NCBI GenBank assembly: GCA_020080175.1
Contig: JAGHQL010000137.1
Location: forward strand, 1 to 64,000
Source of the DNA: Glutinoglossum americanum
Lineage: Eukaryota > Ascomycota > Geoglossomycetes > Geoglossales > Geoglossaceae
Direction: 5' to 3'
DNA length: 64,000 nt
Under the pieces are notes generated by a model. The model made no database searches and was not told the DNA's origin. It worked only from the letters and a program-made list of their open reading frames with translations. The number at the start of each line of letters is the position of its first letter. Position 1 is the first letter of the stretch. The position numbers and the translations under genes are program-made. Below are positions 10,861 through 64,000 of this stretch, piece by piece.

Positions 10861-11055
10861 TTATTCAACGTTATTGCAAATACCGTCTCCGCCGAAGTTG
10901 CCAAAAACACCCAACCACGCCCAGCCTCCCTTCCAGTTTCCCGCATCGGTGTGTTCTTCTGTCAAGGCGTTGGCGAGAACAACCCCCAATGGAAGAAGCT
11001 CTAACGTGAGCGAGGATCTGAGCCTGTCCATCACAGCTCGGGAAGTTGGTGGCAA
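10861..11055 (-). pseudogene. TET/JBP-like dioxygenase fragment
   Basis: About 45 residues match the core of the dioxygenases at 50.0 and 55.2 kb: 'LANALTEEHTDAGNWKGG' then 'WAWLGVFGNFGGDG'. The HxD iron-binding pair survives as H-T-D, but homology stops right after the GGD motif. The distal His and Arg are absent, as is everything upstream. A dead fragment, and the outermost of five family loci in the window. Confidence 0.75.
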
Positions 11056-12356
11056 AGGCGGCGTTCAGGGCGTGGTGGAAAGATCAAAAGGCACTGAAAA
11101 CGGGAGTGCATGAAAAAAAAAGGTGCTAGGGGCCGGCTCACGCCAAAAGAAGGCAAAAATTGCACCGTCTCCGAAATGGGAATGTTGGGTAATGATAATA
11201 TGCCGAGTGGGACACTTTGCCTCTCTATATCGTGGCCGTGAAAAGGGAGTTCTTTATTCTTTCAGACAGCTTGCAGATAGACCCTTCATCTTTATCCTCC
11301 CTGAATTTTCTTTTCTTCTCTTTTCTTCGGAGATCGGGGTGGTAGTTTAGCGGTAGTTGGTAGTTAGTAGAAAACAAGGCCCCGTGGTAGATAGGTTGAT
11401 AGGAAATCAGTCAAGTCGAAAGGAAAATCCACTGCCGGTCGATGACCTCCTGTGGAATTGTTGGAAACCTCGAAGATGTTTTGGAGGAGGGGATATTTCT
11501 TCCGGTCAGGAACACCCCTTTTTTTCCCCACGAGGACGGTCTGGTTGGTAGCATCACTCATTCGAAGAGCACGCCAGGAGAATTCCATTACAAAGGCGTT
11601 TTCCTTATAGTATAGTCTCGTCCCAACCCTGTCTACTCGTATGTATCCATTCAAATTGAAGCGCACTACATTGTAGATGTCCTTAATTCACCAGCTTAAA
11701 TGCGTCTCTACCCCGTCACCCCGCAATGGGCCTATTATAATAGACGGGAGCGGCGAGGAATTTTCGCCGAGGCCCAGTTATTGGCCGGACCAAAACTGTT
11801 CACGGGGCTGTCCTGCCAGGTGTGAAGTAACCCATTATTGCTACATGGGCTAATCAACTTTGTAATTAAAAATTGGCCAGAACCTCAATGATACTCGGGT
11901 TTTGGAAAAATTTCTAGAGCTTCAATACAGCAAAATGTGTATGACCTAGCACTCATATCGGATCTATCTATGGCGTTTTTAGGACACCGAGTAGTTACAA
12001 AAGCTATGAAGTGCTCTGTCCCAAAATATATAGCTATCATTTCTCTCTCTCTCCAATGAAGTCTACATACCATTGCGTATTTGTACCTGGACTTACCCGG
12101 GAACCAGAAGAGGGTCTAGAATTGTGCGACACATCTTCTTGCACCGCAAATTTCTAGCATGTTAGCCCACAGAATCCAGGTTTCGGTTCGTCTCAGCGCT
12201 CTTGTTGAACGACGACTGGCTCTATCAGCCAGATCTCCTCCCAGGTCTCAAAATTTCCTCTAAGGTGGAAATTGTCACTGTCGGTGATTTGAAGGCCTCT
12301 CTAAGAGCGGGTGCAGGTCCTAGGCAGCATTAGCATCGCTTTCTGGGAGGGCATGA
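11056..12356. other. Intergenic, no gene
   Basis: No coding frame with splice support. It contains the 3' flank of the SNF2-like gene (stop at 12,357). Confidence 0.45.
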
Positions 12357-16089: not shown

Positions 16090-16131
16090 CGATGCAAGTT
16101 GGAATCATCCTGCAGCTGTCGATCTCCCATA

Positions 16132-19100
16132 ATGTCCGCGTCGATTTCAACTTCCGACAGGAACTTCCGCCGGGTCCTAGAAGACTTCAAGGCAACGCTC
16201 AGCCAAGATGACAAGGACGATTTCAAGCTGTCCACACTTGACGACCTAAAGCTCGAAATACTCGCTATTCAAGAGGAACAAGCAACAGAGAGGAAAATGA
16301 AGAATTCCGCGCGTCTAAAATCCTTTCTCGAGGCGATGGAGCAGTATGATGAGGTTGTGAAGGTCTTTCTGAACACATCAGAGATCCTCGCGTTCGTCTG
16401 GGTGAGAAGAGTGGTTGTTTTACAATCAAAGTTTACGTCGCACTACTGACAGCACATGCTCAGGGCCCAGTGAAATTCCTGCTCCAAGTAAGAAGAAACG
16501 TGTTAGCTTATCCTTTTAGGAGGCAAGCGCATGACAAAAAGTCCTGTGCTCACAGAAGCCCGCAAAACACCACTAGTACTTCTAACATGGCTGATGTTTT
16601 TTCTGGCAGGTCGCTAATACATTCGCGGACGCGTTCGATGCACTGCTCGATGCGTACCAAGACATTGGCGAGAGCATTCCTTTGTTTGCCCAATATGAAA
16701 GCCTCTTCAAGAATAACCCCTATATGTACACCGTCCTCGAGCTGATTTACGTCGATATTTTGGAATTCCATCGAAAAGCCCTTGGTTACTTCAAGCAGCG
16801 TAGTAAGTTTTAGGCATATAGTCCTTTCTGCTGTCTACAGCATACTTGCAGTACGTATATATTGACTATAAACTTAGTGTGGAAGCAGCTATTCCATGCA
16901 ACATGGAAGACATTTCGGACAAAGTTTTCAGGCATCCTGGCTAATCTTCGACGCCATAAGACCTTAGTAGAAAGCCAGGCGAATCTCATCCAATTCACAG
17001 AGATCCAAAAAACTCGGGCAGCAGCAGAGGCGCAAGTTCGAAGTATGCGGAAAACCGAACTCAGGCAGATGCGAATGGAGGTACGCAGCTGGTTGTCGTC
17101 TGCAGACTCCGACATGGATCACGAGAGTGTTGCAAAAGTGCGAGTGGACTACCCTGATACTGGTCGCTGGCTCCTTAAACAGAGCCAAGTTAGAGCTTGG
17201 TGTGATCCAGACTCGTCATCGATCCAGTTACTCTGGCTCAATGGTATTCCTGGCGCCGGTATGCAGTTCGGACACACCCCAGATCAAGTCAGACGAAAGC
17301 TAATGAAATATGGATCCCGTAGGGAAAACAGTCCTAGCTTCACTTCTTATCGATGAATGCCGCAAGATTCCTACCATATGCGTCGCTTTCTTCTATTGCA
17401 AGTACGAGGACCCACAGCGAAATTCATTCGTAGCCATCGCGCGCAGCATCTTACTACAGTTGCTTCATCATAAGAAGACCCTCCTCTCGTACATATATGA
17501 GAAAGCTTTCACAGGCGGTGGGAGCTCTCTAGAATCTTTGGAACTTGCACAAGAGCTTCTCAAAGTAGCATTGATGGCCTTTGACAGGGTGTACTTGGTC
17601 ATTGACGGGCTTGACGAGTGCAGGAAAACTGAGAAGATGCTCATATCAACATGGTTTCAATCAATGGTTAATTCCGTCTCTGCTGACGATCCCCTTAATC
17701 TTCGATGCCTCTTCATAGGTCAAGTCGACAATGATACTAGCCACCTTCTCAATGCCATTCCTACCCTGCAGATCACGAGCGCGCACAACAGCGAGGATAT
17801 CGCGAATTATTGCAAGGTCTGGGCGGGGAAGATACGGGAGAAGTTCGAACTCTCCTCTGTCGATACAGAATCATTGGTTACAACTGTGTCAGCGAGGGCC
17901 GATGGTGAGGCATCCATCTAAGCCAGGCGGTGCCACTTCTTAACACGAGTAATAGGCATGTTTCTCTTTGCAAGGCTAGTCATGAGCAACTTCTTGAGTC
18001 AGAATTCGAGAGCCAAGTTGCGTAAAGAGATGGCTCCAGAGCATTTTCCACACGGATTAGAACAGGCGTAAGTGAGTCGCACAGCCTCAGTGATCTACCT
18101 GATGCACTGACAGCAAGCCTAAGCTATGCGCGAATCATTCACCGGGTTTTTACAGAAGCCCAACCTTCGGAGAGAGAAGATGCGGCTAAGCTCCTGGGCT
18201 GGTTAGTTTGTGCGAGACGCCCGCTCAAATGGCACGAGATTCAGGGCGCATGGTCATTCGACAGCGACACTCAGACCTTTGACTACGAAGAAAGGCGACT
18301 CAGAACGGACTCTAAAGAGCTTTGTGGATCCTTGGTCGAGATTCGCAATGGAGGAGTAATAGATCTTGTACACCTGACAGCAAAGTTGTACGTAGCTTAC
18401 GCTCCCGCATTTTGCATGATACTCTTCTGAGCTATAGCGCGCCTCAGTTATCTGCTCCAGCAAAAGCTTGTGTTACAGGATGCCGAAGAGTTTAACCTGA
18501 CCTGTCTGTGCTTGGGATACATGAATCTTCCATGCTTTGACATGGGAATTCCTGACACTGACATTAGGAGCGCATTTCTTCAGGGGCATTATGCCTTCAC
18601 AGATTACGCTATTGCATATTGGTCTGAGCACCTCGAGCGGTGTGTTCAGGGCGGCCAACTTGACAATCTGACCTCATTCGGAACGCTCGCGGGCATCCTT
18701 CGTGTCTTTCTTTCAACGCATCATACGGACACGGGAGGCCGACCTTCGACATCAAAAGCACCACAACAAATGTTCCAAAGATTTAGCATGGAAGATTTCT
18801 TCAGAAAACTAATTGATGCGGTCAATTATGCAAGCCAAATGAAGGTAAATAGTAAAGAGGTGCACCAGACGCATTCCCTAGATCTGGCTGATCAGATCGC
18901 CCGCATGCGATCAATTATGGAAAAGATGGCTGGGAGGTCAGACCCAAAGCAGAAGCACAGGCTTCATACCTTATATGGACCTAACCTTTTCAAATGCTCA
19001 AGGATGCCCTGCAAGTATTTCTACGAAGGCTTTCCCAGTAGTCAGGAGCGTGACCGGCACTTCGAAAAGCACCAACGAATGTATTTCTGTACTTACCCAG

Positions 19101-20782
19101 GATGTCACATTGCGCTCATAGGCTTTCAGTCGGGGAAAGATTTGGAGAAGCATGAAACTGAATATCACCAGAAAATAGAAGATGGTTCAACGTTCCCATG
19201 GCATCTACCGCCTGGATCTATCAACATCGGCCAGGAGGTTCGTCTTGGCAACTTGGCTGCTGTCGAGACCTGGATGGAGCAGTTTGAGGGCTATATTCCC
19301 TGCAATATCTTGGTGAAATTTGATACTCCGAGAGGCCCCTTGAACGTAGCGATCGAGTGCAGAAATGAGCAAATATACAACATACTGTTGAGTCGTGCAC
19401 CGGAGAGCTTCTTCTCATTGAAGTCTAATCAAGGGGACTACCACTCGCTCATGGCGAAGACTATTAAGTCACGCAATGAGGAGGCCGTCCGAGCACTCCT
19501 GAGCCTAGCGAAACATGTATCCACCGTTGCTATGTATAGTTTAGTCTCTAAAGCATTGAATTTGAAGCAGGACACCCTAGCCCTAACCCTCATGGAACAC
19601 CCAGATTCCGGGTTAAGACGGTTATCTAATGGACAGAAGTGGTCGCGTAGACGCTCTTCATCTTATTTGACGCTCGCTATTAGGCACGCACGCATAGCAG
19701 TCGTTCGGTCTCTGGTCCTAGACCATGGCATACAGCCAAACCACAAAGATTCAAATTCACGGACGGCCCTGACCGCTGCAGCAGAGTTCGGCCAAGAGGA
19801 GATTGTGGAATTCTTACTGGGAACCGGCAAGTGTACCATCAGAGCTATAAGCAGGGGCGGCGCAACCGCTGCGTCAATGGCTGCGCGACAAGGTCATGAA
19901 AGGATAATCAGACTGCTTTTCCCTCAAGAGCCTCTTCCAAAAGACATAGAACCGTTGCTGAAAAGTGCAGAATTGCGCAACGCGGTGATAGCTGGTGATG
20001 CGGAGCGAGTGGGGGTGCTTTTAAAGCAACAAGACATCAAGGCGGGCCTTGCTGATACAAGTGGCTATACGCCATTGCTGCTGGCCGTAGAAAGGGGCCA
20101 CGATTCAATCGTCAAGCAATTGTTAGGACGAGCGGACGTTCAAATCAACAGAGACAATTACACCTTCAGAAGAAATCCACTACATCTCGCGATATTCAAT
20201 GGTCACGAGGCTGTTGTGCGTCTGCTATTGTCGCGAAAAGAGGTAGGCGTTAAGGATCAATTGTACTTTCCTTCTATCCGCATGAGTACGGACGCGCTTG
20301 GGATTGCAACTCATCTTGGCAACGAAGCCATAATCAAACTGTTGAAAGAGCATGTCTCAGTAACAACGCCGCCACCTACTGTTCATGCTACAAAGCTTCC
20401 TTCCCCTATCTCTGAGCTAGCAAAATCTCCAGCTTTTTCGTCCCCCGGTTCCAATAGAGAGTTACAAGATTACCAGATGGAGCTCATGCTACTTGAGCAA
20501 CAGAACAAGAGGCGACTCTTGATGGCACGCCGAGAAATGGATGCGCTCCCTGCGGGGACAAGACAGGAGACTATCACCAACGATCGACAGTCACAGCCGA
20601 CTGCCAGTCCACTCTGGTCTCCAAGCCCAAGAGAGTTCGCTCCCTCATCAACGTGTTCCGAGCGAGACGTCTCTGCCGAGGCGGCCGAAGATGTAGGTCC
20701 CTATGTTTGTATGATGCAGGAAGGTACTGATACGATATTAGCCCGACTCCGCAATTGCAGCTGCCAGCCCAGATGCGATTGA
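16132..20782 (+). CDS. NLR-like protein: DUF7708-type, NACHT, C2H2 pair, ankyrin repeats
   Basis: A fungal STAND/NLR protein of the kind used in self/non-self recognition. The N-terminus (~16,200-17,000) includes 'GPVKFLLQVANTFADAFDAL' across an intron, matching the DUF7708 helical domain of fungal NACHT proteins. The NACHT P-loop 'LWLNGIPGAGKTVLAS' is split by an intron ending at about 17,322, with the join inside GAGK. Walker B is 'VYLVIDGLDEC' (~17,600). A winged-helix region follows. Two C2H2-like fingers lie at about 18,990-19,170 ('CKYFYEGFPSSQERDRHFEKH', 'CTYPGCHIALIG'). Ankyrin repeats occupy ~19,660-20,370 ('TALTAAAEFGQEEIVEFLL', 'NPLHLAIFNGHEAVVRLLL'). The C-terminus is Ser/Pro-rich. 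At least six introns. It looks intact. Its start faces the SNF2 gene head to head. Confidence 0.88.
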
Positions 20783-29289: not shown

Positions 29290-29640
29290 ATATTTCCCTT
29301 GCAGGATTCTTCCCCTGAGGGCACATGCTTCCCGGCGCTTATAGGACCCCTCAGAGAGTTTTTCCCCTATGGGATTCTTCCCCGGGGGACAGACGCTTCC
29401 CAGCGCTTATGGGAGCCCTCAGGGAGTTTTTCCCCTATGGGATTCTTCTCCTGAAGACAGACGCTTCCCGGTGCTTATGGAAGCCCCTCAGGGAATTTTT
29501 CCCCTATGGGATTCTTCCCCTGGGGGCACATGCTTCCCGGTGCTTATAGGAGCCCTCAGAGAGTTTTTCCCCTATGGGATTCTTCCCCTGGGGACAGACG
29601 CTTCCCGGCACTTATAGGAACCCTCTGTGCTTCTATGGTG
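29290..29640. repeat. 68-bp minisatellite, about five copies
   Basis: Units repeat every 68-69 bp, anchored on CCTATGGGATTCTTCCCC and CAGACGCTTCCCGG. They start near 29,371, 29,439, 29,508 and 29,576 with partial copies outside. The period is not a multiple of three, so every frame stays open by chance. Diverged units recur at 32,450-32,600. Confidence 0.9.
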
Positions 29641-30759: not shown

Positions 30760-31330
30760 CTGTAGCGGACAACAAGACTGGGGGAACAAGCGGCTGGAGC
30801 ACAGCGGGCAACAGGACTGGGAGTACAGATACTGAGTAATGGAGGGTGAGGGAGCAGTAGGGTGGCTGGAGAAAAGAAGTGGCCAGAGCAAGGTGAGGGC
30901 TGGAGAAGCTAGGCGGCCAGAGTTAGAATATGAGAGCCTGATTGGGGGCATGATAGCAGCTAGAGTGGCTAGAGCAGGACGGGGGCTAGAGAAGCTAGGT
31001 GGCTAGAGAAGCCAGGCGGCTAGAGCAAAAAAGTGGCTAGAGCAAGACAGGTGCCAGAGAAGCCCGGTGGCCAGAGAAGCCAAGCGGTTAGAGCAAAAAA
31101 GTGGCTAGAGCAAGACAGGGGCCAGAGAAGCTAGGTGGCTAGAGCAAAAAAGTGGCTAGAGCAGGACGGGGGCCAGATAATCTAGGTAGCTAGAGAAGCT
31201 AAGCGGCCAGAGAAACCAGGTGGCCAGAGCATGAGAGCCCGATTGGGAGCATGATGGCGGCTAGAGCAAAAGAGTGGCTAGAGCAGGATGGAGGCTAGAG
31301 GAAGTAGGCGGCTGGCCTATCAGGTTGGTA
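30760..31330. repeat. GGCTAGAGCA-type tandem array
   Basis: Many imperfect copies of short units such as GTGGCTAGAGCAAGACAGG and CCAGAGAAGCTAGGTGGC. The larger period is about 60 bp. Purine-rich on this strand. Confidence 0.85.
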
Positions 31331-32636: not shown

Positions 32637-33240
32637 ACTAACGTCCCTCCTTGCGTGCCGAGACACCCTCCGTGCCGAGACAAATGAGGGGTACTTTGAC
32701 TTTAAGCAACTCGATTTCAGCGCACATGTTGGTATATACCACAATTCTATATAAGCCGTAACTATAGCTATTCTTAAATATCTAAGACCCTTCCTACTTA
32801 AAATTACATTCATATTGTTGCCTTCACGCTTAAGTTACAATGAACCTTCTTTTCGCGTAAAACACTATCAAGCTCTTACCACCCACAATACTTATAGAGG
32901 GGTCTTATCCGCTTACAATAGCTTGGTAAGTCATCATCAGCCTTGTGTCTGCTGTCGCGCGCATATTCATGCAGGGTCGCCACCCCGATAGGTACCTCCG
33001 ACTGGAGTGATCACCAATCCTGGCTAGTGCAAAACAGCTACATAATCATCACATTGTACTCTACTTACAGTGGCCACCAAGCAAGCTTGTAGCAGTCACA
33101 CCTGTGGCTGTGCGAAGTCTTGGCAAGCGGGCCGACCTAAGCCCCACAGCTTTGCGATCCAACTCACCTCCTCACCTCTTGTAGATTTGCCACCTCACAA
33201 GGGTGTGGCCGGTGCGGGTGGGCCACCCTCCTTGCTAGCG
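32637..33240 (+). repeat. ~0.6-kb repeat, copy A of an inverted pair
   Basis: Begins ACTAACGTCCCTCC and ends near GCTAGCG. The reverse complement lies at 48,924-49,553. The first half (to ~32,940) is clearly diverged from its partner. The part from about 33,010 to 33,200 looks identical by eye. No start, domain or splice pattern supports coding. Origin unknown; it could be a non-autonomous transposon or a conserved boundary sequence. Confidence 0.9.
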
Positions 33241-34430: not shown

Positions 34431-34645
34431 GGCATGACGTGGCGAGGCTTCGCACAGCCTGATCGGCTGTGCTCCGCCACACCCTTCCAACTGAACTTTA
34501 TTGCAAAACAAGCTCAGAACTCACCGTATGGTTAGGAAATGTTACAGCGCTCCTATCACAACTGTGCTTATAGAGATTTCAGAAGTACTCCTAAACAGCT
34601 TAATTAACTTATCTAGCGCATTTTTGCTTTCTACATTCGACAGCC

Positions 34646-40845: not shown

Positions 40846-41853
40846 ATGCCTACACCCACTGCGACGCGCATTACCGAACGCTCTGCTGCCTCCTACCTCC
40901 CTCTTGAGTGGCGAGAGATACGTCGCTTCTCTCCGAGGCTCTTGCCAAAGATTCTCAACAGTATTTCAAGTGTCTCGATGTCCTTTTCGCTGTCAGATCT
41001 CATCGACGACCCAACCCTTCTACCTACCTTCATAAATCACGACCTAGCGACTGCATACAGAGAGATGGGACAGGCCATAGATGAGAGCATGATAATAAAG
41101 GATAAAGAAGGGCTTGGGCTTGTAGTGTTTTTTAAGAAGGGACTGCAGTGGCCGTGGGGACATGCTCGGGAGGTCAACAGGGTTGTGTCCGATGCGGTAA
41201 CTACTCTTGTGTCTCGATACAGTCCTCCTCCTCCTTCCAGGACAGACCTTCGGCATAAGGAATTTAACAGGGATGTTGAGTCGGACTGCGGAGTTTATCA
41301 TTTTGCTTTGTGGGTGGCAACTGGACAGGGTAATGCCGCAAATCCTAAGCATCCAACCCCTCATCAAGCTACCCTCTCTCGCGATATCCTGTCGGCTGCC
41401 TATAAGACCGATGCTGTCCTTCAGTTTTATCGCTCTTTAGCACCTATTATTCAGACTATTGGCATCCTCTTCGAAGGTCTCGATCCTGCAGGTTACTCAC
41501 GATATCGGGCTAACTGGAATTACCTTGTCGGCATAACACCACTCAAACTGTTGGAGGTGTCACAACGCCAATGCTTCTTGGGGATGGCAGTTCTTCATGG
41601 TACGAAGGTTGGAATACATAAAGATAAGGGAGATGTTAAAGATGGTTGGGTGGCTATGATCTGTTGTGGGGAATTTGAAGGTGGTGACTTATGTATTCCG
41701 GGACTAGGCTTGAAGCTTCAGCACAGGCCTGAAGATGTTGTTTTCCTCCGTTCAAGCCTTCTTGAGCATTTTGTTTCCGACTTTGACGGAAGCAGAACTT
41801 CTCTTGTGTTCTTCTCACATGAGAATCTTATTGATACTGGAGGAGGGGTTTAG
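40846..41853 (+). CDS. TET/JBP-like 2-oxoglutarate Fe(II) dioxygenase, short form
   Basis: Single exon, ATG 40,846, 335 residues. The C-terminal third has the double-stranded beta-helix signature of the fungal TET/JBP-type family: 'GIHKDKGD' (His258, Asp260), 'GEFEGGDLCIPGLGL', then 'RSSLLEHFVSDFDGSR' with distal His308 and Arg317, nine residues apart. These would bind Fe(II) and 2-oxoglutarate. Such enzymes oxidise methyl groups on pyrimidines in DNA in characterised members; the substrate here is unproven. The ~250-residue N-terminal part is specific to this family and has no domain I recognise. It lacks the extra exons found in the long copies at 50.0 and 63.2 kb. It appears intact. Confidence 0.75.
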   Translation: MPTPTATRITERSAASYLPLEWREIRRFSPRLLPKILNSISSVSMSFSLSDLIDDPTLLPTFINHDLATAYREMGQAIDESMIIKDKEGLGLVVFFKKGLQWPWGHAREVNRVVSDAVTTLVSRYSPPPPSRTDLRHKEFNRDVESDCGVYHFALWVATGQGNAANPKHPTPHQATLSRDILSAAYKTDAVLQFYRSLAPIIQTIGILFEGLDPAGYSRYRANWNYLVGITPLKLLEVSQRQCFLGMAVLHGTKVGIHKDKGDVKDGWVAMICCGEFEGGDLCIPGLGLKLQHRPEDVVFLRSSLLEHFVSDFDGSRTSLVFFSHENLIDTGGGV

Positions 41854-42932: not shown

Positions 42933-42934
<2 letters not shown>

Positions 42935-48923: not shown

Positions 48924-49553
48924 CGCTAGCAGGGAGGGCAGCCGACCCGCTCTGGCCATAGGGTTGTGAGGTGGCAAATCTACAAGAGGTGAGGAGGTGA
49001 GTTGGATCGCAAAGCTGTGGGGCTTAGGTCGGCCCGCTTGCCAAGACTTCGCACAGCCACAGGTGTGACTGCTACAAGCTTGCTTGGTGGCCACTGTAAG
49101 TAGAGTACAATGTGATGATTATGTAGCTGTTTTGCACTAGCCAGGATTGGTGATCACTCTGGTTGGAGGTACCGATCTGGGTGGCGACCCTGCATGAATT
49201 TGCACATGACAGCAGACATGATACTGATAATAACTTTCTATCATCTAAGTAAGGTTCTAGGGCTTTGATAGGACCTTTTTATAAGTTTTAAGAGCTGTAA
49301 AACCTTAACAGTGGTGCTATTGGGAAGAAGTCTGCTAAGCTACGAAAAGAGACTCTGCGCGTGAGAGCAACAACACAAATGTAATTTTTAAATATAAGGG
49401 CTTCTAAATGTTTCAAAATAGCTATAGTATATAATGTATATAGAATTGCAGTAAATATTAATGTGTACACGGAGTCTGCGTTGCTTGAATTCAATGTACC
49501 CCTCATATATCTCGGCACGGAGGGTGTCTCGCCACACAGGGAGGGACGTTAGT
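48924..49553 (-). repeat. ~0.6-kb repeat, copy B of an inverted pair
   Basis: Reverse complement of copy A (32,637-33,240). The segment at about 48,964-49,157 looks identical to copy A by eye, while the outer half is only partly alignable. With copy A it brackets 32.6-49.6 kb. Outer flanks (AGAAAG before A, TCAGGT after B) show no shared target-site duplication. Confidence 0.9.
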
Positions 49554-50033: not shown

Positions 50034-51893
50034 TCACTCTTGAGCTGTATACCAATCCTCGGGTTTGACATGATCGTAGGCAACCATTCTTCGGATCTCT
50101 CGAGCACGCGTTCTGCGGCGGTTCCGTGTGCGTTGTCTCTGCTTGGCCCTTTCCGAGAGATTAAGTACACTCTCGTTCCTCGTCCCAGCTCGCGAACACT
50201 TAGCTTCCGTATCGACACCGGTAGCCGTTTGTTTCTTCGACGGTCGTTGGCGTAGACTCTCTTTAAAGAAGTGAACCACGAAGTATCGGTAACCCTTCCA
50301 AGGCGCAACAAAGTGTTTAAGAAGACTCCCACGTACATCCACAATGGAACCGGCCGGCATGGGTACTTGAATACCCAGTTGCGACAGGCAAAAATCACCG
50401 CCTGTGAACTTGCCAAATATACCAAGCCAGGCCCATCCCCCTTCCCAATCGCCAGAGTCTATGTGTTCCTCTGTCAAGGTATTAATGAGGATGGCACGGA
50501 GCGGAAATAACTCCTCATTGGCATTCTTGGTCGAATAGACCATTGCACCTGAACTTAGGAGGTCGAATTCTGTGCGATACGCATCCCGGGTGCGCTTATC
50601 GACGATCTGGAAGAGGAGGTCAATTGCCTTCATTAGCGGGCCCAAGGATTTCATCGTCTCCATTCGGTATCGCATTGCATATGCACCGTCCTGTGGGTTT
50701 GATCTTGTCCCGCCCTTCATAGTGTCCTTGGACCAAATGGGCCCCTTCTTCTTTCCTAGTTCAGGCCATGTTCCCCAATGTAGCACGCCGCAGCGGCCGT
50801 TCGGTGGTTGCAAGTGGGGGTTCTTCTCAACCCACCATCCGTGATGAATATGACGGCAGTCTTCGATGACCGGAGGGGGCTGTGATCGGGCATATTCTTG
50901 CAGATTGTATGTGGTATTCGCCATGTAGCGTTCGGCTTCTTCATGACCATAGGCCACCTCCAGACCATTTGGGAAGACCGCGAGGATGTTCCGACGAAGT
51001 TTGTCCTGTGCGATGTAGATAGTGTCTGGCGGTATCGGTTCGTAAAGTCTACTAACGGCCCAAAGGCGATCATGGAATGCTCTCTCACGTGTAATCCATT
51101 TATCGTAAGTGAGCTTTTTCGGTATGCCCTTTCCTTTCAGGCGGTTGGAGGGTTTTGGAGGCTTAGAGTCATTTCCGAGAAGGGAACTAAACGAAGTTCC
51201 AGTTATGATGTTGCCAGGACCCGAGCGATCCAGTGTGTGGGTATTGTTCATACCGCCCTCATGATCCTATAGTAGTTAATACTAATCCTGAAAGATAGCT
51301 CGAGTCACCAACTGTATCCTCAGTGTCCAATTCGTAATCCTCCGGATATTCCAGAGCATCAAAAAAAATGTCTTTCTGTCCTTTCTCGATGTATCATTCA
51401 TCATACATATCAGAGTAGATAACATAACGCGCTTTGTCGAAGTCATCGATGCGCAAGCCGCTCACCCGTGCGTTCGCGATGCCTTGTAGTATGTAAACCT
51501 CGCAGGGACTTTGGTGAAAGGTAGCTGGTTCATCTAGATTTAGCCACGGAAAGCAGTCAATGCGGAGAGGCAGCTCTAGGAGAGGTAGTTGCTTGTTGAT
51601 AGTGTCCCTGGCGGGTTGCCCGAGTGGGTTGATGCTTCGCCACCTAGAGTGGGCCCAGTTCACATTAGCAAGGCCACATGCAATGATGAAATATACAGTA
51701 CTTACCATGAAGCTGGGGACTGAAACGCCTCTCGCAGACCATATGCGAATGACCCAATAGCGCTTGCCGCACTTGCAACTACAGGACCCATATGTCCAAG
51801 CAATTGCGGTGGATTACCGAGGCCCTGGACGACCTGTTCCTCAGCCCGCGGAGCATTTGGATCTCGTGCTGCTGCACGGCCAGCCCTAACCAT
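50034..51893 (-). CDS. TET/JBP-like 2-oxoglutarate Fe(II) dioxygenase, long form (copy 1)
   Basis: Three exons, 51,893-51,706, 51,643-51,313 and 51,266-50,034, total 1752 nt (583 residues plus stop). The first two exons encode a family-specific N-terminal region ('MVRAGRAAARDPNAPRAEEQ', 'LREAFQSPASWWRSINPLG', 'RIDDFDKARYVIYSDMYDE'). Exon 3 carries 'PIPPDTIYIAQDKLR', a conserved 'CRHIHHGWW' and the catalytic core: 'LTEEHIDSGDW' (HxD), 'GKFTGGDFCLSQLGIQVPMP', 'SLLKHFVAPWKGYR' (distal His, Arg nine residues later). A basic, Arg-rich tail follows, as expected for a DNA-binding or nuclear protein. The second intron uses a GTTGGT donor, also used in the paralogue at 63.2 kb. Homology to that paralogue extends upstream of this ATG, so a further 5' exon (to ~52,130) is possible. 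It appears intact. Confidence 0.78.
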
Positions 51894-53789: not shown

Positions 53790-55110
53790 TCGAGGATTCT
53801 TAGACCAACTGTTAAACTGCTGCCTGTAGGGATAAGGCATTTTGATAGGCATGGAAGGTGTCATGCGTGAAGCGAAACCGAAATGCCGTCACGCTGAGGC
53901 CCGCCACAGCTCTAGTTGGGTCTAGATCCCCCTGAGTCCCTCTAACGTGATCCCCAGCACGTACAGAGCTGAATTAAAGGCAGATCCTCCATCACTTCAG
54001 CATACATTACCAATTGCGTCTTGTCAAACCGCCCTGATGCTGTCGGGGATGCTCTCTGCATCCTAACGCAAGACTCTGTCCCTGTAACCCCCGAATAGCA
54101 ATGCATGCTGTGTCACACGGCAGAGAAAAGCATAAAACAATCGGATGGCACTGCCTCCTTCTCTTTGACCACTCATACACCATTGTAGCCTGCAGAGGGA
54201 AGGTGGTTAAGGAGTACTTCCTGGCACAGTTCCAGTGTATGCCATCCATTGCGCCTTGCCGGGTTGCCTTGGTATCGCTATGATGCATCCCGTATCAGGG
54301 GCCAGGAGATCCAGCAGCTGACGTATTGTCCTTGTACAACAGAGACAGTACTTAGGCGAGGCTCTTCTGTCCCCATAATGAGCTCATCTGGTATGGAGGA
54401 TATGTAGTGTAGGAATGGAACATTCCTTTCTCCATCATCCGGAAGGGGGGAGGCGTAGGAGACTCATAGACCAACCGTTATACTGCTGCCTGTATTGTAT
54501 AGGACAAGGCATTTTGACAGGCATATGAGAAGTGTCGTACGTGAAGTGAAACCGAAATGCTGTCACACTGAGGCCTATCATAGCTCCGGTTGGGTGGAGA
54601 TCCTCCTGAGTCTTACCAACATGATCCCGGGCAAGTATAGAACTGAATCAAAAGCAGATCCTCCACTCCAGCGTACGTCACCAATTGCACCTTGTCAAAC
54701 TGCCTTAACGCTAGACTCATCTGCCCCTGTCACCCCTGAATGGCAGAGCACACTTGCCATACGGTAGAGAAAAGCGTAGAATAATTAGATGGCACTGCCT
54801 TCCACGCTTTGGCCACCGATGCATCTTTGTCAAGGCCCACACGGGGAAGGTGGTTAAGGGGTACTCCCCCGCACAGCTCCAGCGTACATCACCCATTGCG
54901 CCTTGCCGGATTGCCTTGGCATCGACATGATACTTCCCGCGTTAGGGGTTAGAGAATCCAGCAGCTGACGTATTGTCTTCATACAACTGAGACAGCACTT
55001 ATGCGAGACTCATCTGTCCCATGACACTTGGCGGCAAAGCATGCTGGCTTGTCATAGGGAAGGGGGGAGGCGCAAGAGAATCGGATAACGCCATCCCCTC
55101 ACACTTGATC
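53790..55110. repeat. Diverged tandem duplication, period ~650-670 bp
   Basis: Landmarks recur in order. AAGGCATTTTGATAGGCAT is at 53,834 and again (AAGGCATTTTGACAGGCAT) at 54,506. GCAGCTGACGTATTGTC is at 54,313 and 54,961. Copies are roughly 75-80% alike by eye. A partial third unit ends near 55,110. A minus-strand stretch ('TKATRQGAMDGIHWNCARK') looks vaguely protein-coding but is broken, so the unit may derive from an old transposon or gene family. Confidence 0.75.
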
Positions 55111-55203
55111 AGTTATCTATTTTTGCAGGCGGCTGTCCCGAGGTGCAAGACTGTAGATCTGGACTAGGCAGCATTTGTGCCGCCTGGTTCTTCGCCCCCT
55201 AAG

Positions 55204-55958
55204 TCAAGCCAGCGTCGGTATTAGTCTTGGAGGAGGTTCAGCTCGCGTTTCCTTCCTTCCCCCCATTTGCAATGTCACAGGGCCCTCCACCCATTCCCAC
55301 ATAATGCCAAATTGAGCCCCAAAAGGAGTGAACAACAGAGTAACGCCGTCTGCCGCTCCATTTAGCGATGAAGTGTTCCAGATCTCTCCTACGCATGCCC
55401 ATAATGGATCCTGCCGGCATGGGCACTGGATACCAAGCTGCGGTATACACAAGTCTCCGTCGTTGAAATCTCCCAAGACGCCAATCCACGCCCACCCGTT
55501 CTCCCAGTCATTGCAGTCTATATGTGCCTCAGTAAGCACGTTGATGAGCACGGCGCGAAGCGTAAAGAGCTCATCTTCCGTAGTTGAAACTTGGGGTGCT
55601 GGTTGTAATTTCTCCCATGCCATGTGGTATTGTTCCCGTATAGGGTTGTCAATAACACGGAAGAGCAGATCCACGCCCCGAGTCATAACACCAAGCGACC
55701 GCATGAGTTGCTGGCGTAGCCTGACAGCATATGCCCCATCCAAGACTCCGGAACATGTCCCACCGGCACGGTAATCCTTAGACCATATAGGACCCCATTC
55801 GGTTTGGCCTTGCTCAAACCAGGTGCCCCAGTGATATACTCCACAGTGTCCCTTCGGCGGCCGAAAATGCTTATTGCTATCCTGTTTAAGCCACCATTCA
55901 TGGTGGGCGTGGCGACAATCCAAAACGGTTGGCGGCGACTGGGATTCAGTATATTCTT
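55204..55958 (-). pseudogene. TET/JBP-like dioxygenase, truncated and frameshifted copy
   Basis: Homologous to exon 3 of the 50.0-kb gene from 'QEYTESQSPPT' onward: 'LDCRHAHHEWW', 'GAYAVRLRQQLMRSLGVM', 'LTEAHIDCNDWENGWAW' (HxD present) and 'GDFNDGDLCIPQLGIQ'. Near 55,430 the frame shifts, and the remaining core ('PVPMPAGSIMGMRRRDLEHF', then 'RRRYSVVHSF') continues in another frame. The iron- and 2OG-binding residues are thus split over two frames. The 5' part, including both upstream exons, is missing: homology stops exactly at the hairpin at 55,959. A dead copy truncated at that hairpin. Confidence 0.8.
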
Positions 55959-56056
55959 GGGAGATTTACTAGAATACCACGACTTTTCGCAAAAATTACT
56001 CACATAGTTACACAAGTAATTTTCGCGAAAAGTCGTGGTATTCTAGTAAATCTCCC
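55959..56056. mobile_element. 98-bp hairpin (foldback/MITE-like) element
   Basis: Two 42-nt arms (55,959-56,000 and 56,015-56,056), starting GGGAGATTTACTAGAATACC and ending with its complement, pair with a single mismatch around a 14-nt loop. Both flanks carry TT next to the arms. The element lies between the truncated dioxygenase copy and the stop codon of the next minus-strand frame, so it marks an insertion or rearrangement junction. Near-perfect arms imply a young element or maintained function. Confidence 0.85.
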
Positions 56057-56677
56057 TTATAATAATCTCCCTGTTCTAGACCTACCTATCTTCCGTTGAG
56101 ATCTTTTTCTACCAAACTTTCCAAGTTCTTCTGCGAGAGGCAATTCGGCCCAGATCTGTTGAGAAATTCGATCCAGATCTTCGCTCTTGCCGACCTCCCT
56201 AACTTCTCGTATCTCAATGCAAAATGTTTTCGAGAATGAAATGTTTAGTTCGATTCGTCGTGAGGAACATCGCCCCTTGGAAGTATTCGAGTTGGCGTAG
56301 AAATACAGACACCAGTTATGGCTTGATGGCAGTGAATGGTTGTCCGTATTCCGCAAATGAGGGAGCTTTAGAGCATTGCACACCCCTTGGTAATTATCCG
56401 AATTTAGGAATTGACATAGCATCCACGACGGATCAAACAGGTCCTCTTTTGAATTGAAACAAGGAACCTCTACTTCCTTCAGCTTTTCCACTGTATTTTG
56501 TGCAATAATTGAAAGACGGTCAACACCTAACGACTGGATGATATGAGACTTGTAGTTCAGTTCTATTAATGTTAGACGGTAAGGACAAAACCGACACACC
56601 AAATACGGCTCACTTGCAAAAGCACGATACATAAGAAACGCCGTCTCTCCCCAATCATCCCATAGACCGTTGACAAT
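56057..56677 (-). CDS. Hypothetical protein, unknown
   Basis: An open frame of about 267 codons runs from just downstream of a TAG at ~56,864 to the TAA at 56,057. The first ATG in it is at 56,677 ('MIVNGLWDDWGETAFLMYRA'). Earlier codons may belong to an upstream exon. The sequence is mixed helical with 'LVCRFCPYRLTLIEL' and a Lys/Arg-rich end. No family recognised. The stop codon touches the hairpin element, so the original 3' end may have been altered by its insertion. Confidence 0.45.
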   Translation of the reverse strand: MVNGLWDDWGETAFLMYRAFASEPYLVCRFCPYRLTLIELNYKSHIIQSLGVDRLSIIAQNTVEKLKEVEVPCFNSKEDLFDPSWMLCQFLNSDNYQGVCNALKLPHLRNTDNHSLPSSHNWCLYFYANSNTSKGRCSSRRIELNISFSKTFCIEIREVREVGKSEDLDRISQQIWAELPLAEELGKFGRKRSQRKIGRSRTGRLL

Positions 56678-59770: not shown

Positions 59771-60466
59771 CAGCTTATCACTCTAGTGTATTGCTGTTAT
59801 GCACTATGTAAAATCTGGGAAGGGAGGTAAAGTGTGCTACCGGATTAATGAGAACGGTGATAGAAGAAACGAACAGTTGCAAAGGGCCCTGTGATCGCTA
59901 ATAAGTAGTTGACTCGTTCAAACTTACTACTAGAGGAACTAGTTGAAACCCCAACTCGCAGTATTACCCAGCCACCTAACCCCAAGAACGGTTATCGCCG
60001 CCGAACCTACCTAATTCGCCGTCTATAAATTCCGCTTCCAATTACCCAAGTGAGATATCATTACGACCGCTCGCTCGTAGCGTCCCAGCCCGTAATCGTG
60101 GGCTATGGGGATCGTTGAGGTTGGGATGTCGTCGTCGCCGTTCTCGCGCTATGGCGAGATCGGTGTGCCGGCTGGCAGCCGGAGACGATCTTGGAAGGTG
60201 GTGCCGGCTAGTTGAGCCGCATTTCGAGCCGCACCGTAGGGCTGCCCTTATTTCTATTATTAAGACTGGCTTCTAAGTTGGCTTAAATTTTCTCTATGTG
60301 CATGCAACATCCGGAGTGCCGACACTCCAGACATGCCAGCCATAAACCCTGTTGAATGGTAACGGTGAGGCGGTACCAAGCGCCACAATGCTATCAGGCA
60401 TTACGAAGCCTCAGCTGGCATCACCGCGGCCTCAGCTGGCGATGGGCCGGAGGCCCACCATGGCCA
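59771..60466. other. Intergenic, no gene
   Basis: Promoter side of the F-box gene, then a GC-rich stretch at about 60,060-60,250 and short palindromes such as GGGCCGGAGGCCC near 60,442. No coding. Confidence 0.45.
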
Positions 60467-60841
60467 TTACAGGCATTTAAGCCGGTCGGAACTCCGTGTA
60501 ATTAATTCTATGATACACTCGGAAGCAATACTACTATTCTGCCCATCATTCTCCTCCGCTGTGTGCTCAGAAACCAACATATATTTATCGACATTAATAT
60601 CTAGGTGAGCAAAACCAGTACTTTCACCCTCAACCTGATACTTGACGTAGTAGGATAGTGCATCAATCATTGCAATCGCATTTTCCATTTTCTGGGAGCA
60701 GCTTCCAGAAGGAGCAAACACCGGCCTGTTTCCAGGCAGTCGGATGAGAACATCGAGTTCGGAGAGTCGAACTCGACTGCTTGGGAGGTTTGCAATACAA
60801 TGAGGACCGCGGATAGTGTAAATAGAGTAAATAGAATGCAA
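60467..60841 (-). CDS. Hypothetical fragment, unknown
   Basis: A minus-strand open frame without ATG, with 'RLSELDVLIRLPGNRPVF' and 'KMENAIAMIDALSYYVKYQ'. Composition is coding-like but there is no start, family or splice partner. A possible terminal exon or relic. Confidence 0.3.
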   Translation of the reverse strand: MHSIYSIYTIRGPHCIANLPSSRVRLSELDVLIRLPGNRPVFAPSGSCSQKMENAIAMIDALSYYVKYQVEGESTGFAHLDINVDKYMLVSEHTAEENDGQNSSIASECIIELITRSSDRLKCL

Positions 60842-61524
60842 AACTATTTACATATTCTCTACAGCATCCTTTTGCAATTGATCTTCAAGTAAATCTGCAT
60901 CATTCTGGCTGTATGTATACCTCTTGAATGTGACTGCTGCTTTCTTTTGAATACTCTATACCTTCTGAGCTACTTTTACTCTTGTTTATACTCTTGTCAT
61001 TACCTTCTGCTAATGCTCAGAAGCCTCTCTATCAGTAAGTACTTACTTTCTAGTACTTTTTTTCTGTTTTCTTATTTGTAAGCTCAAATTAAAAAGTAAA
61101 AAAGAGAGAAGCTTAGAAGAAATTTTCTTATCTATTGCTTTCAAAGTATGAATCTTAACTAGTATCTGATTATTATTATTTACTATTTACTTTATAAAAT
61201 GTTTTAACTACTTTAGAAGTAACTATGATTGATGTTTAAGTAAATATTAAATTAACTCTATTATAATATCTTTACTCTTATTATGAAAATTACTTACCCA
61301 ATACTCTTAAAGGTCTATAACTATATTATAATACCCTATAACCTATCTACTATTAAAAACAGAACTTCTAAAGAGCCATCAGCATAAGTAGACCAAGGAT
61401 ATTGGTAGGGGAAAACCTTTTAAAACAGATTTTTCACAAGATAGAATAATGACTCTGGCTGAAAAGGATAAGTTTGGCAACAAAAAGAAAGTGTGGTCTT
61501 ACAAAGATGCAGATGACTTTATGG
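60811..61524. other. CpG-free AT-rich block
   Basis: No CG dinucleotide occurs over about 710 bases, and A+T is very high, most extreme at 61,060-61,380. This is the footprint expected from long-term cytosine methylation and deamination, or RIP-like mutation. It includes the first part of the interrupted gene at 61.4-62.4 kb. Confidence 0.8.
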
Positions 61525-62386
61525 ACGTCTTGTGGTTTGCTATAGCACCCCTTCTGTAAGGAACCCACGCCGCCGGACGCGGGTGGGCGATGGCAGTGTG
61601 ACGACGTCGGACCGCTAGAAGGCCAACGTACGCTCCGGCCGATATCTTGACGTCCCGTCTACGGCTACAGTGGGTCGGCGGCAGTACGTTGGCTGTCCGA
61701 CAGCTATGCGCTACGTGTGCGGACCGGTAGCAGGAGGAATAGTCTTGATTGTGGAACCAGCTAGTAAGCTGGTCGATGAACTGATCGCTGCCCTCCTACT
61801 GAGCGCAGCGAGAAGACCTAATAGACCGGGAGCCCACTGGGGCTTACCCGGTGCTCGCGGTCACCTGACCGCCACCCCGCCGGAAGTCCGGCGGAGTACC
61901 GCTGTTACACCTTCACACAACAACAGAGGGTAAGGGACGTAAGGATCCTGAGACACTTGCTTGTGTGCTATTTATTGATGAGGTAGACCTACTCTCAAGA
62001 TCAGATCTTAATAATATTATCGGAAAGAAGAGCACAGAGGTTCGTATTGGAAAATACTGTAAAGAGATGGACCTCACACCACCATGGGAAGTCCAGTCGG
62101 ATATAATCCGCGTACCACGGGGAGGAAATATTAATAGGGGTGAAAGCAAGTTGACTGAAAGGCTGGTCGCTCTGGAAAACAAGATTTCGGGATTCGACAC
62201 TTCGAAGCCTGGAGAAACCTCATTGCGAGACATACTTGCTAAGTTGGAAAACAGAATGGCTTCTGTGGAGCAAAAGTTGTCAAAGGTTGACGAGATTGAG
62301 AAAGCATCCATAGGGCTAGCAACCCTAGTGGATGTTCTCTGTGAGAAAGTTGGGTTGGTTCAAACTTCTGCTGCTGGCAAGAAGTA
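61393..62386 (+). pseudogene. Unknown gene interrupted by a solo LTR
   Basis: Left part: 'GKPFKTDFSQDRIMTLAEKD' through 'DADDFMDVLWFAIAPL'. The LTR at 61,555-61,909 is inserted there. Right part, in the same frame: 'GRKDPETLACVLFIDEVDLL' and on to a coiled-coil end ('LAKLENRMASVEQKLSKVDE') with a stop at 62,386. Coding composition is good on both sides, and frame continuity suggests the insertion broke a gene that was open at the time. No family recognised. The 5' end upstream of ~61,390 was not found. Confidence 0.55.
61555..61909. mobile_element. Solo LTR, probably Ty3/Gypsy- or Copia-type
   Basis: A 355-bp non-coding element with TG...CA termini (TGTAAGG ... TGTTACA) and a 5-bp target-site duplication CCTTC on both sides (61,550-61,554 and 61,910-61,914). 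It is GC-rich, unlike its AT-rich, CpG-poor host site. No internal retroelement genes are present, so it is a fossil left by recombination between the two LTRs. An intact duplication and retained CpGs suggest a fairly young insertion. Family level is uncertain. Confidence 0.8.
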
Positions 62387-62480: not shown

Positions 62481-62670
62481 ACGTATTCCACAAACGAGCG
62501 GCCCACACAAGCGAGCGGCCCACTTTGTATCATCACACCAAAATTTATATGCAAAGATACCTCTTCCGTATAAGGAAAGTCGTAGCAGAAGTATCTTTAC
62601 ATACAAATTTTGGTGTGGTGGTACAGAGTGGGCCGCTCGCTTGTGTGGGCCGCTCGTTTGTGGAATACGT
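62481..62670. mobile_element. 190-bp MITE with ~80-bp terminal inverted repeats and TA flanks
   Basis: Left arm ACGTATTCCACAAACGAGCG ... and right arm ... CGCTCGTTTGTGGAATACGT are near-perfect complements over ~80 bp. Each arm holds a doubled GCGAGCGGCCCAC-like subrepeat. TA dinucleotides flank both ends (62,479-62,480 and 62,671-62,672), fitting a Tc1/mariner-type target duplication. Non-autonomous; no coding capacity. Confidence 0.88.
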
Positions 62671-63162
62671 TATTGCAATAATTGTTTTGTAGTTGCTCTT
62701 GAGGTTCGTGAGGCGAGGCAGGCCTTAAGCGTAGCCTCGTGCCTGCGCGCAACCACAGTTTCATAAAATAAACATTATCATGTGCTCGTTTTACACTATG
62801 GAGTGACCGGCTGTATGCAAGACATGCAATCATCCAACCACCATTGTTCAATTCTTTGTGAGGTCTGACGGCAAGGACGCTAAGGTACTGCTATCAGAGG
62901 CACTCTGTGACAAGTATCCTCCGATTACTGTCATTCTTTCGCCCTAGCGCTAAGGGACCAGGGTTCCTTACTCCTATACATCGCGTTCGGAAACACGGCG
63001 AGCACAAATGAAACAGACGTTGATCTGGCAGCCAGGCACGGGCACATTGCGCGGCCATCTGTCCTTCGGTCTCACGGGCATAGGCGCGGAGATCCTGGAT
63101 TGGTTTGACAGAGATACCCGAGTTGAATTTGTGGGCTTCGTTTGGTGCTCCTTCGTGATAGG
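62671..63162. other. Intergenic leading into a duplicated dioxygenase locus
   Basis: From about 62,955 onward the sequence aligns (inverted) with 52,140-51,930 upstream of the 50-kb dioxygenase. It may contain a shared 5' exon or promoter. Confidence 0.5.
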
Positions 63163-64000
63163 ATGGTTAAGGCTGGCCGTGCAGCGGCGCGAGATCCAAG
63201 GGCTCCACGGGCTGACTACCAGGCTGTCCAGGGCCTCGATGATCCACCACAATTACTTGGGCATCTGGGCTCTGCAGTGACGAGAACGGTTGGGTCATTC
63301 ACATATGGCCTACGAGAAGCGTTTCGATCCCCGGCCTCATGGTAAGTGCCTCTTATTATTGTATATGGCATTGCTGATGTGAACCGGGCCCCCTAGGTGG
63401 CGAAGCATCAATCCGCTTGGGCAACCTGAGAGGGACACTGTCAGCAAGCGACTGCCCATTTTAGAGCTACCGCTTCGCATCGACCGCTTTCCGTGGCTCG
63501 ATCTGGATGATCCGACTACCTTCCACCAGAGCCCTAGCCAGGTCTACATACTACAGAGCATTGCAGATGCAAGAGAAAGTGGCCTGCGTATCGACGACTT
63601 TGACAAGGCGCGTTATACTATCTACTCTGATACGTATGACGAACGATACATCAAGAAAGGACGAAAGGATATCTTCTTTGATGCTCAGGAATATCTGGAG
63701 GGTTATGGGTGGGAAGATACAGTTGGTAACCTCGAATCATATTTCATGATCAGCACTAACCACTATAGGTTTATGAGGATAGTTTGAATGACGCCCATGC
63801 AACAGATGGCTCGAGTCTCGGCAACATCGTGATCACACCTGAGTCCCCCGCTCAGAAATGCCTCAACCGGTCAAAAAGAAATGATATACCGAAAAAGCTT
63901 ACCTATGACGAATGGATTGCGCGTGAGAGGGCGTTCCATGACAGCCTTTGGGCCGTAAGCAGATTTTACGAACCGATACCGCCGGACACCATCTTCATAG
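63163..64000 (+). CDS. TET/JBP-like dioxygenase, long form (copy 2), 5' part, runs off window
   Basis: Inverted paralogue of the 50.0-51.9 kb gene with the same exon plan: exon 1 63,163-63,341, exon 2 63,397-63,721, exon 3 from 63,769 to beyond the window. Junction phases match (TCA-TG/G-TGG; ACA/GTT), and so does the unusual GTTGGT donor of intron 2. Protein parallels: 'MVKAGRAAARDPRAPRADYQ', 'WRSINPLGQPERDTVSKRLP', 'RIDDFDKARYTIYSDTYDE', 'KKLTYDEWIARERAFHD', 'YEPIPPDTIFI'. The frame is open to the window end. The catalytic core is outside, so activity cannot be judged. Confidence 0.75.

What the first reader, a model, noticed from the sequence alone, without database searches (positions are those of the whole stretch)
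10861..64000. Five loci of one TET/JBP-like dioxygenase family within 53 kb
Copies at 10.9 (-), 40.8 (+), 50.0 (-), 55.2 (-) and 63.2 kb (+) span two intact genes, one cut by the window end, one truncated and frameshifted, and one fragment. Wherever the core is seen it keeps HxD, GGD/DGD and a distal His with Arg nine residues later. Known: fungal TET/JBP genes underwent lineage-specific expansions linked to KDZ transposons (Iyer and colleagues 2014). Inference: this is an ascomycete expansion, possibly mobile, acting on 5-methylcytosine.
Basis: partly seen in the sequence, partly recalled or inferred. Interest (0 to 1): 0.8.

Follow-up and report, generated by a model that had tools for sequence, protein, structure and literature searches.

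The report
Clustered fungal TET-like DNA-modifying enzymes
A stretch of fungal DNA carries five related copies, some of them decayed, of a gene for a TET/JBP-type oxygenase, the enzyme kind that oxidises methylated DNA bases; the family is known, but this version lacks the marks of two of the three types described in fungal transposons.

Summary
The five loci are real and form one family (6 of 10 locus pairs linked by tblastn, best hits 1.4e-9 to 4e-63; best of 20 shuffled windows 0.012). The family is TET/JBP-like: the 40.8-kb protein hits Pfam Tet_JBP at 1.9e-8 (34.1 bits, cut-off 34.9), a profile finds CcTet in the PDB at 5e-6, and two phage Tet_JBP proteins match. Both structure predictions failed, so the fold is unconfirmed. 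The 50.0- and 63.2-kb copies share a three-exon gene with a conserved N-terminal module; the 50.0-kb copy has an in-frame stop there. All four copies that show the iron site have HxD; the type reported from ascomycete transposons has HxE. They carry Asp/Asn where conventional TETs hold the 5mC amino group, and lack CcTet's two special residues. No transposase lies beside the copies among 78 ORFs scanned, but a piece of a DUF3435 recombinase (Starship-captain family) lies at 27.7 kb, 13 kb from the nearest copy; mobility is possible, not shown. Best reading: locally duplicated TET/JBP genes, probably 5mC oxidases, a variant of a known kind, probably in an ascomycete.

The parts
40846..41853 (+). 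TET/JBP-like gene 1 (c41): single open frame, 335 aa from the ATG; compact protein without the N-terminal module of c50/c63
   Evidence: Pfam Tet_JBP 1.9e-8, 34.1 bits; HKD...GGD...H(9)R
51706..51893 (-). c50 exon 1 (start of N-terminal module)
   Evidence: aligns with c63 exon 1
51313..51643 (-). c50 exon 2; in-frame stop near 51.39 kb where the 63.2-kb paralogue is open
   Evidence: 103 codons compared with c63, pN/pS 0.15
50034..51266 (-). c50 exon 3: TET/JBP-like core and basic C-terminal tail (410-codon open frame, P0002)
   Evidence: Tet_JBP 2.1e-3, 17.8 bits, below cut-off; profile A1 to CcTet 5e-6
55310..55959 (-). c55: 5'-truncated, frameshifted copy of the core (52% identical to c50 over 183 positions)
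55959..56056 (.). 98-bp palindrome (42-nt arms, 98% complementary, 14-nt loop) at the truncation point of c55
10876..11001 (-). 42-codon fragment of the core with HTD and GGD
   Evidence: 62% identity to P0002, E 2.6e-13
63163..63341 (+). c63 exon 1
63397..63721 (+). c63 exon 2 (N-terminal module, open)
   Evidence: no Pfam match for the ORF over it, no PDB match for 63383-63721 at E up to 1
63769..64000 (+). c63 exon 3, cut by the window end before the catalytic core
   Evidence: 76 codons aligned with c50 exon 3, pN/pS 0.42
62966..63162 (+). upstream (promoter/5' leader) stretch still homologous to the DNA upstream of c50

Best explanation
A small, locally duplicated family of Fe(II)/2-oxoglutarate DNA-base oxygenases of the TET/JBP superfamily in a filamentous fungus, probably an ascomycete. 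The His-x-Asp...His triad binds Fe(II), the Arg nine residues after the distal His binds 2-oxoglutarate, and an Asp (Asn in one fragment) three residues after the HxD Asp sits where conventional TETs hold the N4 amino group of 5-methylcytosine; the enzyme would therefore oxidise 5mC (to 5hmC and further), perhaps in silenced or repeated DNA. The family has spread by old DNA-level duplication (introns and upstream DNA copied at least once) and decays by truncation, frameshift and stop codons. Shown: family relationship, exon structure by comparison, residues, decay, constraint on the shared exon 2. Inferred: the fold, activity, 5mC as substrate, role against silencing, host group.
For: Tet_JBP hit of P0001 at 1.9e-8 over profile 30-164 of 164, with no other oxygenase family at E up to 1 for P0001-P0003. 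Profile of three window sequences against the PDB: CcTet 5.1e-6, Naegleria Tet-like 0.21; P0001 alone finds CcTet at 2.5e-4, its only two hits at E up to 10. tblastn to phage proteins (9e-6, 1e-3) that score 103 and 94 bits for Tet_JBP; profile comparison with one of them 94% probability, E 1.2e-7. CcTet alignment puts HxD on His326/Asp328, the distal His on His376 and the Arg on Arg385 (roles from passages of PMC11040006). The position of CcTet Gly331 (hTET2 Asn1387, NgTet1 Asp234, CMD1 Asp350) is Asp in 3 and Asn in 1 of the 4 copies that show it. Exon 2 of c50/c63: pN/pS 0.15 over 103 codons, one stop pair dropped.
Against: P0001 is 0.8 bits under the Tet_JBP cut-off, P0002 far under it (17.8 bits), P0003 has no hit. 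Both AlphaFold models are unusable (pLDDT 33.9 and 30.8). The CcTet position-337 residue is Ala/Val, where CcTet needs Asp for 5mC and other TETs have Thr/Ser. Constraint is weaker elsewhere: exon 3 c50/c63 0.42 over 76 codons, core c50/c55 0.33 over 177 codons and c50/c41 0.66 over 262 codons, the last two with synonymous sites saturated. The distant c41 (27-29% identity to the other cores) carries most of the Pfam evidence. Activity and expression untested.
Confidence: 0.66

Rival explanations
1. The copies are, or were, cargo of mobile elements: small DNA transposons as in Kojima 2025 (Helitron1 or IS3EU in Pezizomycetes, KDZ and others in Basidiomycota), or a larger element such as a decayed Starship; the enzyme would protect the element from methylation-based silencing.
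For: Five copies on both strands within 53 kb, at least two of them decayed; fungal TET/JBP genes are often transposon-borne (PMC12730594); a DUF3435 recombinase piece at 27710-28117 (E 1.8e-27, profile 96-210 of 418), the domain of Starship captains, on the same strand and upstream of the 40.8-kb copy; NLR-like genes near; a MITE-like element near c63; a 19-nt, 84% inverted pair around c55.
Against: No transposase family listed for the ORFs next to the copies; DUF3435 genes are more often found solo and this one looks broken by stops and frame changes (by eye); the c55 pair occurs in 4 of 100 controls of one of four regions tested, and no pair brackets c41, c50 or the 10.9-kb fragment; HxE hallmark of the ascomycete transposon type absent; copies are diverged, 27% to about 79% aa identity, and blastn shows no shared flank except for c50/c63.
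Confidence: 0.29
2. TET/JBP-fold enzymes with a different substrate (thymine, hypermodification of 5mC as in CMD1, or RNA).
For: The Asp at the Gly331 position is also present in CMD1 (Asp350); Kojima states that other activities cannot be excluded for diverged types; position 337 is Ala/Val.
Against: No glycosyltransferase family listed for the 78 ORFs scanned; the Asp/Asn anchor recognises the cytosine amino group in three characterised enzymes.
Confidence: 0.2
3. A dying, non-functional gene family: relics of a former expansion.
For: c55, the 10.9-kb fragment and c50 exon 2 are damaged.
Against: c41 open over 335 codons with all catalytic residues; strong constraint between c50 and c63 in exon 2; c63 open as far as seen.
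Confidence: 0.15
4. A different 2OG-Fe(II) oxygenase clade (prolyl hydroxylase, AlkB or other) that only resembles TET/JBP at HxD and distal His/Arg.
For: Sub-threshold Pfam scores; fold not confirmed.
Against: The oxygenases found are Tet_JBP, CcTet/NgTet and phage Tet_JBP proteins, by three searches.
Confidence: 0.06

Closest known systems
CcTet of Coprinopsis cinerea (close to the AG type; PDB 7vpn, 7w5p, 8jkk)
   Same: Best solved relative; HxD, distal His, Arg nine later, all in register; Thr at the CcTet Thr323 position in c50
   Different: Gly331 is Asp/Asn and Asp337 is Ala/Val here, so CcTet's dual 5mC/6mA pocket is not predicted (residue roles from passages of PMC11040006)
PE-type TET/JBP dioxygenases of Pezizomycetes and Agaricales transposons (Kojima 2025, PMC12730594)
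   Same: Fungal, multi-copy; the only TET/JBP type that this paper reports from ascomycete transposons
   Different: PE hallmark HxE is not met: HxD in 4 of 4 copies that show it; no Helitron or IS3EU gene found near
Phage Tet_JBP proteins (Pelagibacter phage HTVC112P gp18, Nonlabens phage P12024L gp26)
   Same: H-x-D-x-G-D shared with c41 and c50; H, D and the second D invariant in alignment A5
   Different: Phage context (P12024L gp26 lies two genes from a DNA methyltransferase); 20-21% identity to c41; gp26 also hits 2OG-FeII_Oxy_6 at 2.9e-4, which the window proteins do not at E up to 1
TET/JBP expansions of Coprinopsis and Laccaria (Iyer 2014: not held, known from recall and from its citation in PMC8889193; C. 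cinerea numbers in PMC12730594)
   Same: Lineage-specific multi-copy TET/JBP families
   Different: Those are tied to Kyakuja/KDZ-type transposases; none found here

Membership tests
Tet_JBP (PF12851), TET/JBP superfamily | Score above the curated Pfam cut-off (34.9 bits) | tested here: not met
   P0001 34.1 bits (E 1.9e-8), P0002 17.8 bits, P0003 no hit. Read as a relative within the wider superfamily, not as a member of the Pfam model as curated.
TET/JBP superfamily | Fe(II)-binding HxD...H and 2OG-binding Arg in register with a solved TET | tested here: met
   His326/Asp328/His376/Arg385 of CcTet; 2 of 5 loci show all four residues in one frame, a third across a frameshift
TET/JBP superfamily | Sequence-profile link to characterised TET enzymes and to no other 2OG clade | tested here: met
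TET/JBP superfamily | Double-stranded beta-helix fold | tested here: inconclusive
   AlphaFold models pLDDT 33.9 and 30.8; no fold search made on them
Conventional TET (hTET2, NgTet1) | Asn/Asp at the N4-binding position (Asn1387/Asp234) | tested here: met
   Asp in 3, Asn in 1 of 4 copies (position)
Conventional TET (hTET2, NgTet1) | Thr/Ser at the position of CcTet Asp337 | tested here: not met
   Ala in 3, Val in 1 of 4 copies (position)
Conventional TET | Oxidation of 5mC | not testable with these tools
   needs an enzyme assay
CcTet / AG type (Kojima) | Gly/Ser at 331 and Asp at 337 | tested here: not met
   Asp/Asn and Ala/Val
PE type (Kojima) | HxE instead of HxD | tested here: not met
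   HxD in 4 of 4 visible copies
PU type (Kojima) | conserved residues of its Figure 7 | not tested
   figure not held; only its legend was read
Transposon-borne TET/JBP | transposase in the same element, terminal repeats and target-site duplications | tested here: inconclusive
   no transposase beside the copies; a DUF3435 piece 13 kb from c41; one bracketing inverted pair at c55, in 4 of 100 controls; intron-split or decayed transposases and element ends beyond the window would be missed
Ascomycete origin | orthology of the window's genes to an ascomycete genome | not testable with these tools
   no genome held; DUF3435, NACHT, ankyrin, TPR-CHAT, DUF7924, DUF7600 and mitochondrial bL34 fit Pezizomycotina

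The most novel reading that the evidence does not exclude
A separate class of fungal TET/JBP enzymes (HxD with an Asp N4 anchor, plus a private N-terminal module in part of the family), distinct from the AG and PE transposon-borne types (and perhaps from PU, which was not tested), giving an ascomycete a conventional 5mC-oxidation system of its own, host-encoded or carried by a Starship-like element.
Probability: 0.25. Interest if true: 0.62.

Novelty: new variant of a known kind. Interest (0 to 1): 0.42.

Why it matters
If these genes are active, some ascomycetes would have a conventional TET pathway for removing or rewriting cytosine methylation, in a phylum where the literature seen here reports only HxE-type, transposon-borne TET/JBP genes. 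It would make 5hmC in such a fungus directly testable. If they are element relics, they add an HxD lineage to the list of TET-carrying elements, possibly one linked to Starships.

Tried and rejected
Structure route: two AlphaFold jobs with alignments of 3 and 4 window sequences gave unusable models, so no fold search was run. Relatives: viral contigs with profile A1 and with P0001 and genome contigs with A1 gave none; phages with P0002 gave none, with P0001 three records of two phages. Own genome not held. RIP: of 32 windows of 2 kb, one (60001-62000: 1.14 and 1.02) meets both customary RIP thresholds (thresholds recalled), the rest do not meet both. Transitions: they make up 62-100% of differences in 9 of 10 repeat pairs (c50/c63 144 of 190, TPR array 112 of 161, 53.8/54.5-kb repeat 77 of 98), but 21 of 48 in c50/c55 (another alignment of c50/c63 gave 166 of 210); since unrelated repeats show it too, it is not special to these genes. 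The CpG share of transitions exceeds background in some pairs (50 of 144 against 24%; 29 of 112 against 17%; 22 of 77 against 15%) and not in others (4 of 21 against 20%; 9 of 56 against 15%), at most weakly compatible with CpG methylation. A first exon-3 comparison used a wrong frame (25 codons, ratio 1.0) and was replaced. NCBIfam gave nothing of use for the two dioxygenases; Rfam and tRNA scans nothing. An in-frame reading of exon 2 through intron 2 was rejected because the two copies differ by one base in length there and each ends in CTATAG after a branch-point-like stretch; the intron-2 donor (GTTGGT) is unusual and unproven.

Papers: PMC12730594 abstract, sections 4, 18, 23, 26, 34 and passages; PMC11040006, PMC13297926, PMC8889193 and PMC12134995 passages only; Iyer 2013 and 2014 not held. 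The statement that an HxD type is unreported in ascomycetes rests on searches in an open-licence library and on those parts of PMC12730594; subscription papers, figures and supplements were not seen.

Full report
Observation. The window holds five loci of one protein family. tblastn of the window's own proteins against the window links 40.8 kb (+), 50.0 kb (-), 55.2 kb (-), 10.9 kb (-) and 63.2 kb (+): 6 of 10 locus pairs, best hits from 1.4e-9 to 4e-63, while 20 block-shuffled windows gave a best value of 0.012. The pairs without a link are those in which one partner lacks the shared part, and 10.9-40.8. The catalytic stretch is visible at 4 of 5 loci: HKD, HID, HID and HTD, each followed by GGD or DGD. 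The distal His with Arg nine residues later is in frame at 40.8 and 50.0 kb and in a shifted frame at 55.2 kb.

Anatomy. The 40.8-kb gene is a single open frame of 335 codons from its ATG. The 50.0- and 63.2-kb copies are an inverted pair, 73% identical over 1.1 kb of DNA. Their alignment suggests a three-exon gene: exon 1 starts with MV[RK]AGRAAARDP, intron 1 is GTAAGT...CTAG, exon 2 encodes a conserved module, and a second short intron (46 and 47 nt) leads to the dioxygenase exon. In exon 2, 103 codons compared give pN/pS 0.15, with one codon pair dropped because one copy has a stop; the aligned start of exon 3 gives 0.42 over 76 codons; the cores of c50 and c55 give 0.33 over 177 codons and those of c50 and c41 0.66 over 262, both with saturated synonymous sites. 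The stop lies in exon 2 of the 50.0-kb copy, where the 63.2-kb copy is open. The 50.0-kb gene is therefore damaged or starts downstream at an internal ATG. The 55.2-kb copy has lost everything before residue 123 of the 50.0-kb exon-3 frame (P0002); its homology starts at 55959, the first base of a 98-bp palindrome, and its C-terminal part is in another frame. The N-terminal module gave no match in Pfam or, for the 113-aa c63 exon-2 piece, in the PDB.

Family. P0001 hits Tet_JBP (PF12851) at 1.9e-8, 34.1 bits, 0.8 bits under the curated cut-off; P0002 hits it at 2.1e-3, 17.8 bits; P0003 does not; no other oxygenase family appears at E up to 1 for the three. A profile of three window sequences (A1) finds the mushroom enzyme CcTet at 5.1e-6 and the Naegleria Tet-like enzyme at 0.21 among PDB chains; P0001 alone finds CcTet at 2.5e-4. 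tblastn against 50,697 phage records finds three records of two phages with P0001 and none with P0002; the two phage proteins score 103 and 94 bits for Tet_JBP, one matches the window profile at 1.2e-7, and both share HxDxGD with c41 and c50. P0001 also matches a PHROG of unknown function at 5.4e-6. Structure prediction failed twice, most likely for want of related sequences (pLDDT 33.9 and 30.8), so the fold is untested.

Active site and likely chemistry. Against CcTet the window motifs fall on His326, Asp328, His376 and Arg385, which hold the metal and 2-oxoglutarate. Passages of PMC11040006 say that hTET2 Asn1387, NgTet1 Asp234 and CMD1 Asp350 bond the N4 atom of 5mC and exclude 6mA, while CcTet has Gly331 there and uses Asp337 instead. 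The window family has Asp (3 copies) or Asn (1 copy) at the first position and Ala (3) or Val (1) at the second (with the register). This favours a conventional 5mC pocket over CcTet's dual one. It is inference: the register rests on a weak 90-residue alignment, and position 337 lacks the Thr/Ser of other TETs.

Comparison with the known fungal types. Kojima 2025 (PMC12730594; abstract and sections 4, 18, 23, 26, 34 read) divides transposon-borne fungal TET/JBP into PU, AG and PE types and reports Helitron1 and IS3EU elements with TET/JBP genes in Pezizales; HxE is the hallmark of PE. The window family fails that hallmark in 4 of 4 visible copies and fails both AG residues. PU residues are in a figure that is not held. 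So the family is TET/JBP-like but not of the type described for ascomycete transposons.

Mobility. No transposase or Helitron helicase is listed beside the dioxygenase copies. One ORF, 27710-28117 (+), matches DUF3435 (PF11917) at 1.8e-27 over profile 96-210 of 418. This is the domain of the captain recombinases of Starship elements of Pezizomycotina, but such genes are more often found solo (PMC12134995 passages). Around it, other pieces that look like the same protein lie in other frames with stops between them (by eye), so it seems broken. Whether the dioxygenase copies at 40.8 kb and beyond were ever its cargo cannot be told here. Inverted repeats: a 19-nt pair (55145-55163, 56172-56190; 84%) brackets c55, as in 4 of 100 Markov controls; no pair of 16 nt or more brackets c41, c50 or the 10.9-kb fragment; the 63.2-kb copy is cut and could not be judged. 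The c50/c63 duplication carries introns and about 0.2 kb of upstream DNA, so it was made at DNA level; its 3' end is outside the window. A 190-bp MITE-like element with TA on both sides lies 0.5 kb upstream of c63 but does not contain the gene.

Host. No genome is held. DUF3435 and the neighbouring genes (MFS, F-box, bL34m, SNF2, NACHT, ankyrin, APH-like kinase, TPR-CHAT, DUF7924, PNP_UDP, DUF7600) fit a filamentous ascomycete; that is judgement, not a test. One of 32 windows meets RIP thresholds, and the transition bias is shared by unrelated repeats.

Verdict. A real, partly decayed cluster of TET/JBP-like genes; a sequence variant of a known kind. Superfamily membership is likely, 5mC oxidation plausible, a KDZ link unsupported, mobility open.

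Noticed in passing
27710-28117 (+), remains about 26.8-29.2 kb: Piece of a DUF3435 tyrosine recombinase (Starship-captain family; E 1.8e-27), apparently broken by stops and frame changes.
   Followed up: partly
33005-33200 (+) and 48964-49159 (-): A 196-bp block is identical in two copies of a 0.6-kb repeat that is otherwise clearly diverged (about 80% overall). Recent gene conversion, a nested young insertion or constraint could explain it.
   Followed up: partly
62481-62670: 190-bp MITE-like foldback with TIR ACGTATTCCACAAACGAGCGGCC and TA on both sides; resembles fungal Tc1/Fot1-type MITEs (resemblance recalled).
   Followed up: partly
51.94-51.89 kb (-): Relative to the 63.2-kb copy, the 50.0-kb copy has an insertion of about 42 nt just before its start codon, bounded by the repeat CGTGAT and with inverted ends: a possible transposon footprint.
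   Followed up: no
34604-39721 (+): 1705-codon TPR-CHAT ORF with about 23 tandem 135-bp repeats, perhaps an NLR-like or protease-type immune gene.
   Followed up: no
16814-20782 (+): NACHT (NPHP3_N) ORFs followed by an ankyrin-repeat ORF, probably one NLR gene.
   Followed up: no
53795-54373 and 54461-55020: Tandem 0.6-kb repeat just downstream of the 55.2-kb copy, 82% identical, 77 of 98 differences being transitions.
   Followed up: partly
29304-29625 and 30964-31313: Minisatellite arrays (68- and 17-bp units).
   Followed up: no
1-55: Window opens with a poly-G run of about 55 bases.
   Followed up: no
L001:2066-2974: Pelagibacter phage HTVC112P gp18 is annotated as DnaJ/SNF2 but scores 103 bits for Tet_JBP: likely misannotated.
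   Followed up: yes
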